From Candidatus Peregrinibacteria bacterium GW2011_GWF2_39_17 (GTDB taxonomy: Bacteria; Patescibacteriota; Gracilibacteria; UBA1369; UBA12473): a stretch of 64,000 nucleotides of DNA. Shown here piece after piece: positions 165 to 4,565 of the stretch. Position numbers and translations under genes: made by a program. Location of the stretch: positions 1 through 64,000 of the forward strand of contig LBWM01000010.1 in NCBI GenBank assembly GCA_000993615.1. The letters run 5' to 3'. The notes under the pieces are model-generated. The model worked only from the letters and a program-made list of their open reading frames with translations. It ran no database searches and was not told the DNA's origin. The number at the start of each line of letters is the position of its first letter. The first letter of the stretch is position 1.

Positions 165-1751
165 ATGCCCAATTCCTATTTATCTATCTCGTTTTTTCAA
201 CGTCGGAAATTAAAGCTTGCAGCCTTAATTATGGGTGCCATTATTTGGGCACTTCCCTTGATTACACAAGCCCAAACAGCGCCAATCAATGACACTCCAA
301 ATTTTGAAGGTGTTCTAAGCCTTGACCAGCCAATAAAAACTTTGCCAAACATAACTATTAATTACGATCCGCAAATAGAAGTAGGTAAAGCAGGGATTTT
401 TGATGCCTCAGGCACTATTCTTCCACCTGAATATAAAACGGTTATTTATAAATGGGATTTTGGAGACGGCGACACGGCCAAGGGAGCGGAGGTTGTTCAC
501 TTTTACAATCAAGCCGGAGATTATACCTTAAATTTAAGCATTGAGGTGGATGGGCAACCCTATGAGCAGAAAAATATTGCCATTTTTGCCTATGAAAAAC
601 TTTATTTTCTGATTACTGATCAATTTGACCAAAGCGAAAAAATCAGCAGTTTAATTAAATTCGCTCATGATCGAGGTTCCTATGTTGAACTTATTTCAAG
701 TTATGAATCCGCATCCGAATTTTTAACCGAAGAAGAACTAGTTCAAAAGCTAAACGAGTCCTTACCCATTCTCCAAGAAACAAACGAAATTATTATCTGG
801 ACAAGAGGAAGCACCGGCTTAACCCTCTTATCCCGTTTTAACCAAACTCTAACCGACAAATCCGTGTTTGAAAATATGCAATTTGTAATGATCACAGATC
901 AACGGTTTATCCCTGTTCGCAATGTGGCCGAGGGTACTTTTCGAACAATTAAACCAGTCCGAATTATCCTAACAAGGTCTGAAGCCCTTTGGATGTTCTT
1001 TGAACAAGATAATATTGAAACATTTATTAACGAACTTGACCAAAGAGGAATTGCCTATGAAATCGTGGATAAAGTGCAAAAAATCACATTCCTCAATTTC
1101 ATGTCCTATCTAGTAAGTTATATGGTCGAAAAAGGAGTTCCCAGTAATTCACTACTATTAGTGCTGATGCTTCCGGTTATTGTCACCATCGTAGCCTTTT
1201 TCAAACAGGTGATCGGACTAACAACCATGGGAGTTTACACTCCGTCTATTATTACCCTTTCGTTTTTAGCACTAGATATTCGTTTTGGAATTTTGATTTT
1301 TATTGTTATCTTATTATTTGGCTCTCTAACCAGATTAATCCTCCGGCGCTACCGGTTACTGTATATCCCCAGGATGGCAATTGTGCTTTCCATTGTTAGT
1401 TTAACAATCCTAGCCATGCTCTTACTTGGAGCTTATTTCAATATTTCTCAATTAGTTTCCATCTCCATTTTCCCAATGCTCATTATGAGTACTATGGTGG
1501 AAAAATTTGTTAATGCCCAGGCAGAAGCAGGTTTCAAGCAAGCCTTCGCCATGATCTGCGCCACTCTTTTTGTGGCAATTATTTGTTATTATGTTGTCGA
1601 ATGGCCACTTTTAAAAACCATCATTCTCGGTCATCCAGAATTAATTTTTGCCTTTCTCGGCGTTAATGTAATTTTAGGTAGATGGACAGGGCTAAGACTC
1701 TTAGAATATGTCCGTTTTAGGGAAATTTTTCGTTATACAGAAGAAGAATAA
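165..1751 (+). CDS. PKD-domain protein with C-terminal 7TM bundle (7TM-transglutaminase-like family)
   Basis: A 528-residue secreted/membrane protein. Residues 1-37 look like a signal peptide (basic RRKLK, hydrophobic core, possible cleavage after TQA). Residues about 64-140 form a PKD-type beta-sandwich with the hallmark WDFGDGD. Residues about 145-310 form an alpha/beta extracellular domain I do not recognise; no Cys-His-Asp transglutaminase triad is visible. From about 325 to 515 there are seven hydrophobic segments, with GVYTPSIITLSFLALDIRFG resembling the 7TM region of the 'inactive transglutaminase fused to 7TM' family. The next gene, 15 bases downstream, is an ATP-grasp ligase of the type that accompanies this 7TM family in proteobacteria, which supports the assignment. 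I infer a membrane partner or sensor for peptide modification outside the cell. The substrate is unknown. The ATG at 165 was chosen because it gives a complete signal peptide. Confidence 0.75.
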   Translation: MPNSYLSISFFQRRKLKLAALIMGAIIWALPLITQAQTAPINDTPNFEGVLSLDQPIKTLPNITINYDPQIEVGKAGIFDASGTILPPEYKTVIYKWDFGDGDTAKGAEVVHFYNQAGDYTLNLSIEVDGQPYEQKNIAIFAYEKLYFLITDQFDQSEKISSLIKFAHDRGSYVELISSYESASEFLTEEELVQKLNESLPILQETNEIIIWTRGSTGLTLLSRFNQTLTDKSVFENMQFVMITDQRFIPVRNVAEGTFRTIKPVRIILTRSEALWMFFEQDNIETFINELDQRGIAYEIVDKVQKITFLNFMSYLVSYMVEKGVPSNSLLLVLMLPVIVTIVAFFKQVIGLTTMGVYTPSIITLSFLALDIRFGILIFIVILLFGSLTRLILRRYRLLYIPRMAIVLSIVSLTILAMLLLGAYFNISQLVSISIFPMLIMSTMVEKFVNAQAEAGFKQAFAMICATLFVAIICYYVVEWPLLKTIILGHPELIFAFLGVNVILGRWTGLRLLEYVRFREIFRYTEEE

Positions 1752-1766
1752 CCTGTAATCACGAGT

Positions 1767-4136
1767 ATGTTTTTTAAAAATCATGGCATCTTAGGAATAA
1801 ACGCTCGAAATCTGCTCTATATCCGTCCTTTCAACCGTGCCAAGGCCGTTAAATTAGCAGACAGCAAACTGAACACAAAAAGCTTTTTAAGCACAAGAGG
1901 TATACCGGTACCCAAACTTTACGCCACAATTAGAAATCCTGTTGAATTAAAAAAATTCGATTTTTCTTCGTTGCCAGATACTTTTGTACTTAAACCAAAT
2001 CGGGGAGCAGGTGGCGAGGGCATTCTCCCAGTATGGAGCCATCAACATCAAAATTATTTACTGTCAGATGGAAAATCCATAACTCAAGAGGAATTTGCCG
2101 AACATATCAGCGATATTTTGGATGGCCGTTTTTCAATTTCCGGAGTAACTGATATTGCTTTTTTTGAACAGCGGATCATTAGTGCTGAAAAAATTGCCAA
2201 ATTTGCTTACAAAGGATTACCAGATATTCGGGTAGTTGTTTACAATTTAGTACCGGTCATGGCCATGCTAAGATTACCCACCAAAAAATCAAAAGGTAAA
2301 GCTAATCTTCACCAAGGAGCCATTTGTGTCGGAATTGATATTGCTAAAGGGGAAGCAACCCACGCGGTGCAGGGAACCAATCTAATTGACGAAATACCAG
2401 GAAGCGGACCGATCAAAGGCTTAAAAATTCCCTATTGGGATGAAATTTTACTAATCGCTTCTAAAATCCAAATGGAAACCAATTTGGGCTATTTGGCTGC
2501 GGATATTGCCCTGGATCAAAATATCGGACCCGTTTTACTAGAAATCAACGCCAGGGCAGGATTAGGCGTTCAAATAGCGAACCTAGCGCCATTAAGAAGA
2601 AGGTTGGAACGTATTAAGGGTATTAAAGTTCCGACACCAGAAAAAGGAGTCAGAATAGCAAAAGATTTGTTCGGAAATGTATTTGAAAAAGGCATTAAGC
2701 ATATCTCAGGTAAGGAAGTAGTAAGTACACTTGAGCCTATTAATATTTTAGTGGGATCAAAGCCTTACCGAGCTATGGCCTCCCTTGATCTTAATCGAGA
2801 AAAAACCGAAATAGATGCTGCCTTCGCTCGTAAAATTAAACTATTAGAGAATGAACAAAATATAAATAAAACTTCAGAATCACTAAAAATTAAGTTTTTA
2901 CTGTCCGGAACCAGGGTGCAAACCATTGCTAAAATTACAAATTTAGACCTAAAAGATGTTTCCGTAATCATCGGTCATCGAGATTTACAAAGATTTTTAA
3001 TCGATCCCACTAAATCACCCAAAAACACAGGGAAAAACATAAATACCTACGTAAGCCACAGTGTAATTCAGCATCCTAATTTTAAAGAAATTGATGAAAA
3101 AATTTGCAATATTGATGAGAAAATTAAACTTTTGTATCATTTAAGGCCTCTTAATTTAGACCAAGAACAGCAAAAATTTTTTGAAAATAGAATAAAAAAT
3201 CCCCAATTCCGATATCCAGAATTGCAATTTGATCCATATAATTTAAGAGATCAATTAAATGAATTACAATTAGGTGAATCCGTCCTGGGCTATCTTTTTA
3301 CCCAAAAAAGAAAGGAAATTCTTCAAAAAATCGATTTACTGGAACATCGCGGAAGTTCGTATTTTATTCAAAAATCAAATATTTTATTTGGAGAAGTAGA
3401 CCATAACTTATTAGGCGAGGCTAAAGAAAAATTACAGCAAAAACCATTACATTTTAAAAGCGAAAGCCATTTTTTAAATCAGGAACAAGTCGCAAAAAGA
3501 CTACAACAATTTTTGGAGGTTAAAGAATTGAAAAAATGGAGTATAAAATTTAAAAAAAATATGGCCTCAGACTGTGTAGTTGGAAAGCAGGGGATTCTCT
3601 TTTTGCGAGAAGGAATCATGATATCCGAGTCAAGGTATCAAATGCTAGTGGCCCATGAAGTCGAAACGCATATTTTTACTGCGGAAAACGGCGCTCTGCA
3701 ACCTTATCATCTTTTTCAGCGAGGAACCGGTAATTACTTATCAACCCAAGAAGGTTTAGCAATCTACAATCAAGAAAATGCCGTTAATGAGTTAACTGAA
3801 AAACATTTTTGGAATGCAGCCCTAGTTATCCTTATTCATACGGCTCAAACCAATTCCTTTAGACAGGTTTATGAAGCAGCTCAAAAATTAGGTTACAGCC
3901 GCGATAAGGCATTCCAAGTCGCCCTAAAAACCAAAAGGGGATTAGAGGACACCTCGGAATCAGGCGCCTTTACTAAGGACTTAGTCTATTTCCAGGGACA
4001 TAACATGATAAAACATTTTGTGGAACAAGGGAATGATCTTAAGAGGCTTTATATTGGGAAAATCAACCTAGCAGATTTAGAAAAAATAGAAACCTTGCCC
4101 TTCCTGAGAGCCCCAAAATATTTTACAAAATTTTAA
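1767..4136 (+). CDS. ATP-grasp amino-acid ligase (RimK/alpha-L-glutamate-ligase-like) fused to DUF1704 zincin-like peptidase domain
   Basis: A 789-residue two-enzyme fusion. Residues 1 to about 290 are an ATP-grasp ligase: FVLKPNRGAGGEGI is the nucleotide-binding loop and EINARAGLG the metal-binding strand. The family is the alpha-L-glutamate-ligase homologue that pairs with 7TM-transglutaminase proteins. A linker leads to a C-terminal region (about 400-789) matching DUF1704, the family of bacterial 'QEGLA-motif' proteins and of the eukaryotic MATCAP tyrosine carboxypeptidases. The signature is visible: HEVETH at 630-635 (zinc ligands), NGALQP, and the EGLA glutamate at 662. Known chemistry of the two families is ATP-dependent amide-bond formation and removal of a C-terminal residue. 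Having both in one chain suggests an add/trim cycle on a peptide or metabolite, which is inference. Co-transcribed with the upstream 7TM gene and followed 12 bases later by the riboflavin kinase gene. Confidence 0.8.
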   Translation: MFFKNHGILGINARNLLYIRPFNRAKAVKLADSKLNTKSFLSTRGIPVPKLYATIRNPVELKKFDFSSLPDTFVLKPNRGAGGEGILPVWSHQHQNYLLSDGKSITQEEFAEHISDILDGRFSISGVTDIAFFEQRIISAEKIAKFAYKGLPDIRVVVYNLVPVMAMLRLPTKKSKGKANLHQGAICVGIDIAKGEATHAVQGTNLIDEIPGSGPIKGLKIPYWDEILLIASKIQMETNLGYLAADIALDQNIGPVLLEINARAGLGVQIANLAPLRRRLERIKGIKVPTPEKGVRIAKDLFGNVFEKGIKHISGKEVVSTLEPINILVGSKPYRAMASLDLNREKTEIDAAFARKIKLLENEQNINKTSESLKIKFLLSGTRVQTIAKITNLDLKDVSVIIGHRDLQRFLIDPTKSPKNTGKNINTYVSHSVIQHPNFKEIDEKICNIDEKIKLLYHLRPLNLDQEQQKFFENRIKNPQFRYPELQFDPYNLRDQLNELQLGESVLGYLFTQKRKEILQKIDLLEHRGSSYFIQKSNILFGEVDHNLLGEAKEKLQQKPLHFKSESHFLNQEQVAKRLQQFLEVKELKKWSIKFKKNMASDCVVGKQGILFLREGIMISESRYQMLVAHEVETHIFTAENGALQPYHLFQRGTGNYLSTQEGLAIYNQENAVNELTEKHFWNAALVILIHTAQTNSFRQVYEAAQKLGYSRDKAFQVALKTKRGLEDTSESGAFTKDLVYFQGHNMIKHFVEQGNDLKRLYIGKINLADLEKIETLPFLRAPKYFTKF

Positions 4137-4148
4137 TCCACCTTCATT

Positions 4149-4565
4149 ATGTTTCCGGTATTTAGTGGTCATCTTATTTCAGGGCATGGGAGGGGCAAAA
4201 AACTAGAAGTACCAACCTTAAATTTAGATAGAATCAAGGGAGATAAGCCGCAAGATTTTGGAGTCTATGCAGTTTATGCTTCCTGGCAAAGAAAAACCTA
4301 TCAGGGAGTAATGCACATTGGCCCTCGTCCAACCTTTAACGAGCTAGATGTCTCCATTGAAGTTCATCTCCTAGATTATGAAAAAAAATCTCAAGATGAT
4401 TCAAAGTTAATTGAAAAGGCTGACCTAGTGGTAAAAATTACCATAATTGAAAAATTGCGATCCATTAAAAAATTTAACAACCCGGAAGCGTTGAAAAAGC
4501 AAATGCGCAAGGATATGATAAGCGCACGTCTTTCCCTTAAAAAACACCCATGTTCGCTTATCTAA
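4149..4565 (+). CDS. stand-alone riboflavin kinase (C-terminal RibF domain)
   Basis: 138 residues matching only the flavokinase half of bifunctional RibF, the step riboflavin + ATP to FMN. Visible family features are the GHGRGKKL/VPTLNL nucleotide loop near the N-terminus, FGVYAVYA, GVMHIGPRPTF and the conserved Glu in SIEVHLLDY. The usual N-terminal FMN adenylyltransferase domain (about 180 residues) is absent and no remnant precedes the ATG, so this protein should make FMN but not FAD. The 3' end overlaps the murE start by 16 bases in another frame, so the two are probably translationally coupled. Confidence 0.85.
   Translation: MFPVFSGHLISGHGRGKKLEVPTLNLDRIKGDKPQDFGVYAVYASWQRKTYQGVMHIGPRPTFNELDVSIEVHLLDYEKKSQDDSKLIEKADLVVKITIIEKLRSIKKFNNPEALKKQMRKDMISARLSLKKHPCSLI

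What the first reader, a model, noticed from the sequence alone, without database searches (positions are those of the whole stretch)
1767..4136. Ligase and zincin-like peptidase fused in one chain
The protein joins an ATP-grasp amino-acid ligase (FVLKPNRGAGGEG, EINARAGLG) to a DUF1704 domain with HEVETH and EGLA, the family of MATCAP tyrosine carboxypeptidases. Making and cleaving an amide bond in the same polypeptide suggests a cyclic peptide-tagging activity in a CPR-like cell. The substrate is unknown.
Basis: partly seen in the sequence, partly recalled or inferred. Interest (0 to 1): 0.7.

Follow-up and report, generated by a model that had tools for sequence, protein, structure and literature searches.

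The report
Ligase–carboxypeptidase fusion with dead retropepsin
A tiny uncultured bacterium makes one protein that can probably both add and remove amino acids (most likely glutamate) at a chain end, and in it a working zinc peptidase appears to have taken over from an older, now broken, retrovirus-protease-like domain that sits between the two enzymes.

Summary
In detail: window 1767-4136 encodes one 789-aa protein with an intact RimK/RloC-type ATP-grasp ligase and an intact MATCAP/DUF1704 zinc carboxypeptidase. The fusion is old: 38 of 59 genomes searched in and around its order carry it. (1) Residues ~316-415 are a third domain, a degenerate RloA/RimB-type retropepsin. (2) The gene 15 bp upstream is an RloB-like 7TM protein, so the pair matches the proteobacterial rlo operon. 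In other Patescibacteria the ligase-retropepsin protein is unfused and its retropepsin keeps DTG/DSG and both polyglutamate-binding arginines (19/19 without a nearby MATCAP gene). In fusions the flaps and arginines are gone and only 8/89 keep D[TS]G, while ligase and zinc residues stay at 88-89/89. Fusion arose at least twice. Best reading: a single-chain writer/eraser of acidic (probably poly-alpha-glutamate) C-terminal tails, in which a MATCAP deglutamylase replaced the retropepsin eraser and the dead domain remains as a structural or activating module. The chemistry is inferred; the acceptor is unknown. RimB-RimK single-chain hybrids are already known, so this is a new variant of a known kind.

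The parts
1767..4136 (+). Fusion gene, 789 aa: RloC-type ATP-grasp ligase + degenerate retropepsin + MATCAP carboxypeptidase
   Evidence: ORF; families; full-length homologues
1806..2618 (+). ATP-grasp ligase domain (residues 14-284)
   Evidence: PF14397 E 2.9e-67; TIGR02291 269 bits; model matches ArgX-LysW-Glu 3vpb Z 19.0 and RimK 5zct Z 17.9; K76, E134, R155, D246, E259, N261 invariant in 89/89
2712..3011 (+). Degenerate RloA/RimB-type retropepsin domain (residues ~316-415), new here
   Evidence: Profile-profile hit to RloA/RimB; PF05618 in 3 of 16 homologues, best E 9.4e-4; fold matches 2pma Z 12.6, 9g59 RloA2 Z 12.1, 9g58 RloA Z 11.9
2787..2795 (+). Position of the retropepsin DTG motif, here Asp-Leu-Asn (residues 341-343)
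   Evidence: Alignment to RloA
3093..4124 (+). MATCAP / DUF1704 zinc carboxypeptidase domain (residues 443-786)
   Evidence: PF08014 E 7.4e-48; TIGR02421; human MATCAP 7z5g Z 25.6 over 278 residues, 2.5 A
3654..3671 (+). HEVETH, HExxxH zinc motif (H630, E631, H635)
   Evidence: 89/89 fused keep E631 and H635, 88/89 keep H630
3750..3761 (+). EGLA, third zinc ligand E662
   Evidence: 88/89 fused, the other a gap
165..1751 (+). RloB-like membrane partner: N-terminal hydrophobic segment (apparent signal peptide), PKD domain (residues 61-129), unassigned region, 7TM_transglut helices (331-521); no transglutaminase domain
   Evidence: PF14402 E 1.9e-36, PKD_4 E 8.4e-14; a 7TM gene directly upstream in 78 of 86 fused loci with at least 1.6 kb of upstream sequence

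Best explanation
The gene pair 165-4136 is a Patescibacteria version of the Rlo system. The cytosolic fusion protein is a single-chain writer/eraser. Its N-terminal RloC-type ATP-grasp ligase uses ATP to add amino acids, most likely alpha-linked glutamate, to the C-terminus of a peptide or protein. Its C-terminal MATCAP-type HExxxH zinc carboxypeptidase removes them again, setting tail length. Between them lies a former RloA/RimB-type retropepsin that once did the removing; it lost its catalytic site, its flaps and its polyglutamate-binding arginines in the lineages where a MATCAP enzyme was joined to the chain. The dead domain is probably kept as a dimerising or ligase-activating module, as RimB stimulates RimK. 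The RloB-like 7TM protein encoded upstream is the membrane partner, either presenting the acceptor or exporting the product. SHOWN: domain content, three-domain fold homology, intact ligase and zinc sites, decayed retropepsin, conserved operon, at least two fusion events. INFERRED: glutamate as the added residue, antagonism of the two activities, role of the dead domain, role of the 7TM protein. UNKNOWN: the acceptor.
For: Domains. Hidden retropepsin: hhalign of 16 homologous mid-segments against 10 RloA/RimB sequences, probability 92.8, E 4e-7 over 102 columns, with the decayed site aligned on LDTGA and VIIGHRDL..FLIDP on LLGRQ..IDPS. Folded alone (pLDDT 82, pTM 0.74), it matches RloA 9g58 first in Foldseek (E 1.2e-5) and 2pma/RloA2/RloA at VIA Z 12.6/12.1/11.9. 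Unfused relatives are hit by both the mid-domain and RloA profiles, the latter down to 1e-14. Active-site contrast: D[TS]GA in 19/19 unfused proteins without a nearby MATCAP gene and 10/10 RloA/RimB, but D[TS]G in only 8/89 fused; median residues between DTGA and LLGR are 95 unfused, 88.5 RloA, 53 fused. The equivalents of RloA R114 and R137, needed for polyglutamate cleavage (PMC12239564), are Arg in 19/19 unfused and not among the common letters in fused. Ligase residues are 89/89 and zinc residues 88-89/89 in the same proteins. Ligase-domain tree: two separate fusion clades; a third lineage with an adjacent MATCAP gene (L108-L110) also lost the site. Operon. Function by homology: RloA cleaves polyglutamate and sits in an operon with RloB and RloC, and loss of rloB or rloC rescues rloA mutants (PMC12239564); RimB stimulates RimK (PMC11957791); TMCP/MATCAP enzymes are carboxypeptidases that also deglutamylate (PMC10499314).
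Against: No activity of any bacterial RloC-type ligase or DUF1704 enzyme was found measured in the papers read; glutamate specificity rests on relatives (RimK, RloA, TMCP). The TIGR02291 and TIGR02421 scores are below their equivalog cut-offs. Human MATCAP also removes Tyr and other residues, so the eraser's specificity is open. Proteobacterial RloA is secreted, whereas here the retropepsin shares a chain with a cytosolic ligase, so the biology may differ. Some unfused systems keep DTGA although a MATCAP gene is adjacent (4 of 7), so MATCAP presence alone does not force decay. Only two independent fusion contrasts exist, too few for a significant test. Domain arrangement is not reliably modelled.
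Confidence: 0.55

Rival explanations
1. Free polymer rather than protein tagging. The ligase makes untethered poly-alpha-glutamate (or another short acidic polymer) as an osmolyte, reserve or exported polymer; the 7TM protein exports it and the peptidase trims or recycles it.
For: RimK makes free poly-alpha-glutamate and RimB stimulates this (PMC11957791); the Rlo phenotype is osmotic and the authors consider free polyglutamate (PMC12239564); the membrane gene is directly upstream; several related loci carry further ATP-grasp ligases.
Against: No exporter activity is known for the 7TM family; a carboxypeptidase in the same cytosolic chain as the synthase would waste ATP unless regulated.
Confidence: 0.27
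2. The ligase is not a glutamate ligase but builds or modifies a cell-wall or surface peptide, with the peptidase as an editing or trimming carboxypeptidase for that peptide.
For: PF14397 is named for association with sugar transfer; some unfused loci hold three or four ATP-grasp genes, and in three loci (L105, L106, L122) the MATCAP gene follows mreB directly; rlo mutants have cell-shape and wall-antibiotic phenotypes (PMC12239564).
Against: Unfused relatives keep the tested RloA residues needed for polyglutamate binding, pointing to polyglutamate in this family; the closest folds are amino-acid ligases acting on Glu or related substrates.
Confidence: 0.13
3. The two enzyme halves act on unrelated substrates and were joined only for co-expression.
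For: In many genomes the MATCAP gene is apart from the ligase gene or was not found.
Against: Repeated fusion, adjacency in unfused clades, and decay of the retropepsin eraser in MATCAP-linked lineages.
Confidence: 0.05

Closest known systems
RloABC operon of Pseudomonas aeruginosa (retropepsin RloA, inactive-transglutaminase 7TM RloB, ATP-grasp RloC; PMC12239564)
   Same: RloB-like 7TM gene directly upstream of an RloC-type ligase; an RloA-type domain is present though dead
   Different: Retropepsin is fused to the ligase and inactive; a MATCAP peptidase is added; the 7TM protein has PKD instead of transglutaminase; no secreted protease
RimB-RimK hybrid enzymes (PMC11957791)
   Same: Glutamate ligase and deglutamylating protease in one chain
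   Different: Ligase is RloC-type, the protease that looks active is a zinc carboxypeptidase, and the retropepsin is dead
Human MATCAP/TMCP (KIAA0895L, KIAA0895; PMC10499314)
   Same: Same peptidase fold (Z 25.6), HExxxH and EG zinc residues, KRG..DTS..G.F.KD.VY segment
   Different: Stand-alone in human and acts on tubulin tails; here joined to a ligase in a bacterium
Bacterial QEGLA proteins (TIGR02421), for example Vibrio sp. HDW18
   Same: Same MATCAP domain family
   Different: In Vibrio joined to an N-formylglutamate amidohydrolase-like domain, not to a ligase
Unfused Patescibacteria ligase-retropepsin proteins (L091-L107 and others)
   Same: Same ligase domain, same operon with the 7TM gene, same mid-domain
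   Different: Retropepsin intact (DTGA, flaps, arginines) in nearly all; MATCAP separate or not found

Membership tests
ATPgrasp_ST / RimK-related ligases (PF14397, TIGR02291) | Profile match over the whole domain | tested here: met
   PF14397 E 2.9e-67 over 2-277 of 278; TIGR02291 269 bits, under the 314-bit equivalog cut-off
ATPgrasp_ST / RimK-related ligases (PF14397, TIGR02291) | ATP- and metal-binding residues (Lys, Asp, Glu-x-Asn) | tested here: met
   K76, D246, E259, N261 in 89/89 fused homologues
ATPgrasp_ST / RimK-related ligases (PF14397, TIGR02291) | Glutamate ligation | not testable with these tools
   Needs an enzyme assay
MATCAP / DUF1704 (PF08014) | Profile match and fold | tested here: met
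   E 7.4e-48; 7z5g Z 25.6, 278 residues, 2.5 A
MATCAP / DUF1704 (PF08014) | HExxxH plus Glu of the EG motif | tested here: met
   88-89 of 89
MATCAP / DUF1704 (PF08014) | Carboxypeptidase or deglutamylase activity | not testable with these tools
   Known for human TMCPs (PMC10499314)
RloA/RimB retropepsins (PF05618) | Retropepsin fold | tested here: met
RloA/RimB retropepsins (PF05618) | Catalytic D-[TS]-G | tested here: not met
   D-L-N in the window; 8/89 fused keep D[TS]G: derived from the family, not an active member
RloA/RimB retropepsins (PF05618) | Flaps and polyglutamate-binding arginines (R114, R137 of RloA) | tested here: not met
   Segment shortened from about 95 to 53 residues; arginines lost
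RloB | 7TM C-terminal domain | tested here: met
   PF14402 E 1.9e-36
RloB | Inactive transglutaminase domain | tested here: not met
   PKD plus an unassigned region instead; NF052267 aligns only over its last ~210 positions
RimB-RimK hybrid | Active retropepsin joined to RimK | tested here: not met
   Ligase matches TIGR02291 far better than the RimK family model; retropepsin site decayed

The most novel reading that the evidence does not exclude
A single polypeptide that writes and erases C-terminal polyglutamate tails, in which a tubulin-tail-type carboxypeptidase family (MATCAP/TMCP) has, at least twice independently, displaced a retropepsin as the eraser, leaving the dead retropepsin as an activator or dimeriser: a bacterial counterpart of the TTLL/TMCP pair that edits tubulin tails.
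Probability: 0.4. Interest if true: 0.78.

Novelty: new variant of a known kind. Interest (0 to 1): 0.62.

Why it matters
It extends the newly described Rlo system, whose RloB was reported as almost only proteobacterial, across Patescibacteria, which have few genes and little known physiology. It gives bacterial DUF1704/MATCAP proteins a concrete, testable role (removing what an ATP-grasp ligase adds), and it shows an evolutionary swap of one protease class for another inside one protein, with the displaced enzyme still in place. A three-domain single chain is also a convenient reagent for testing how ligase and eraser are coordinated.

Tried and rejected
1) Assembly artefact or chance ORF: rejected, dozens of independent full-length homologues. 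2) A direct HMM search of the window's own mid-segment found nothing credible (member 1), and a sequence profile of it found no PDB chain; only homologues, profile-profile comparison and the fold revealed the retropepsin. 3) PF05618 on whole genomes of relatives gave only sub-threshold hits. 4) VIA alignment of the full model listed ligase and MATCAP-like folds only, because those domains fill the list; the mid-domain needed its own model. 5) Tree of the MATCAP domain: long branches and weak support, so the source of each fused MATCAP stays unresolved. 6) Facing active sites: untestable, pTM 0.49 and no inter-domain error available. 7) Ribosomal protein S6 as acceptor: the own-genome S6 has a long, Glu-rich, genome-encoded C-terminal extension ending FNL, neither for nor against. 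8) Defence system: no PADLOC match for either gene. 10) The key older survey of ATP-grasp amidoligases (Iyer 2009) is not held; whether it mentions this association was not checked. The open-access library holds no report of the fusion by the terms tried, which is weak evidence of absence.

Full report
WHAT IS THERE. The ORF at 1767-4136 (+) encodes 789 aa. Pfam gives ATPgrasp_ST at 14-284 (E 2.9e-67) and MATCAP, the former DUF1704, at 470-777 (E 7.4e-48); NCBIfam agrees with TIGR02291 and TIGR02421, each below its equivalog cut-off.

IT IS OLD AND CONSERVED. Of 59 genomes searched in the order (own genome included), 38 have a full-length homologue; 19 of these were aligned, at 31-59% identity to the window protein. 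A draw of 379 genomes from the phylum finds 37 fusions, 33 of them in the window's own class and four outside, and about 72 genomes with a shorter relative that matches only positions ~4-420, that is, ligase plus middle (counts made by reading the match list). A scan of named genomes returns 80 loci, titled mostly Peregrinibacteria, Peribacteria and Gracilibacteria, with some Magasanikbacteria and Parcubacteria; nearly all are full-length, a few are cut by contig ends, and a few titles from other phyla are probably misnamed bins. The window genome belongs with these Patescibacteria.

THE MISSED THIRD DOMAIN. The stretch between ligase and peptidase is not a linker. Three of 16 homologous mid-segments hit PF05618 (best E 9.4e-4), and several other weak hits are aspartic-protease families. 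Profile-profile comparison with RloA/RimB sequences fetched here gives probability 92.8, E 4e-7 over 102 columns. Folded alone (pLDDT 82, pTM 0.74) it matches P. fluorescens RloA first in Foldseek, and 2pma, RloA2 and RloA at VIA Z 12.6, 12.1 and 11.9 over 103-104 residues at 2.7-2.9 A. Unfused Patescibacteria relatives are matched in the same stretch by both the mid-domain and the RloA profile, the latter down to 1e-14.

THE RETROPEPSIN DECAYS ONLY IN MATCAP-LINKED PROTEINS. In the 19 unfused proteins with no MATCAP gene seen nearby, the motif is D[TS]GA in all 19; in 10 RloA/RimB sequences, in all 10; in 89 fused proteins only 8 keep D[TS]G and none DTGA. The segment holding the flaps shrinks from a median 95 residues to 53. 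RloA residues K46, D48, R114 and R137 map by a constant offset of 19 onto the Legionella sequence; the arginines are 19/19 in the unfused set and not among the common letters in the fused set. In P. aeruginosa, changing R114 or R137 impairs polyglutamate cleavage and rescue (PMC12239564). In the same 89 fused proteins the ligase residues K76, E134, R155, D246, E259, N261 are invariant and the zinc residues are kept in 88-89. Two active sites are conserved and one is not.

FUSION HAPPENED AT LEAST TWICE. A tree of the ligase domain (65 rows) needs two changes of fusion state on well-supported branches: a large clade of 32, and L113/L114, which lie with unfused L121. Retropepsin loss accompanies both, and a third loss is in L108-L110, where the MATCAP gene is adjacent but unfused. 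With two independent contrasts no significance can be claimed; four of seven unfused proteins with an adjacent MATCAP gene still keep DTGA.

OPERON. The gene 15 bp upstream (165-1751) has an N-terminal hydrophobic segment, a PKD domain and a C-terminal 7TM_transglut domain. A 7TM gene is directly upstream in 78 of 86 fused loci with enough sequence and 34 of 35 other loci. This matches rloB-rloC. Legionella adelaidensis shows the classic order: RimK/LysX-family (retropepsin) protein, inactive transglutaminase protein, ligase-like protein. The Patescibacteria 7TM protein lacks the transglutaminase, which may be why an earlier survey assigned RloB almost only to Proteobacteria (inference).

HOW IT PROBABLY WORKS. 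RimK adds Glu to C-termini and makes free poly-alpha-glutamate; RimB removes the residues and also stimulates RimK; a RimB-RimK hybrid exists (PMC11957791). RloA cleaves runs of 8 or more Glu, and loss of rloB or rloC rescues rloA mutants (PMC12239564). Human TMCPs, the same family as the C-terminal domain here, remove C-terminal residues and polyglutamylation from tubulin (PMC10499314). The simplest joint reading is a writer/eraser in which MATCAP has taken over from the retropepsin, and the dead domain survives for dimerisation or ligase activation. Glutamate as substrate, antagonism, and the roles of the dead domain and 7TM protein are inferences; the acceptor is unknown. A free-polymer variant and a cell-wall-peptide variant remain open.

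NOVELTY. Ligase and protease in one chain is known (RimB-RimK). New here, as far as the held literature shows, are the three-domain architecture, the protease swap, the extension of an Rlo-type system to Patescibacteria, and a genomic context for a bacterial MATCAP domain. I file it as a new variant of a known kind.

Noticed in passing
L105:1147-3344, L106:9117-11317, L122:12891-14999: In three genomes of one family the stand-alone MATCAP gene lies directly downstream of mreB on the same strand (overlap or a gap of about 20 bp), hinting at a link to cell shape.
   Followed up: partly
L106:3332-9116, L093:2327-7437: Loci with the 7TM gene, the ligase-retropepsin gene and three further ATP-grasp genes in a row: possible multi-ligase peptide pathways.
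   Followed up: partly
L210:1138-1845 (- strand), own genome: Ribosomal protein S6 has an N-terminal extension and a long, very acidic Glu-rich C-terminal extension.
   Followed up: no
L030:2200-4329, L036:2179-4305, L040:1937-4339, L027:9284-11509: A 700-800 aa protein with Big_1 and fn3 domains and an apparent signal peptide is encoded divergently next to the 7TM-fusion pair in several relatives; a possible surface partner or substrate.
   Followed up: partly
L048:5128-7119: Vibrio QEGLA protein is an N-formylglutamate amidohydrolase-like domain joined to MATCAP, another amide-hydrolase pairing.
   Followed up: no
window 4149-4565: 138-aa riboflavin kinase domain without the FAD synthetase half of RibF.
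   Followed up: no
window 165-1751, residues ~140-330: Region between PKD and the 7TM helices of the RloB-like protein has no Pfam assignment and replaces the transglutaminase domain.
   Followed up: no
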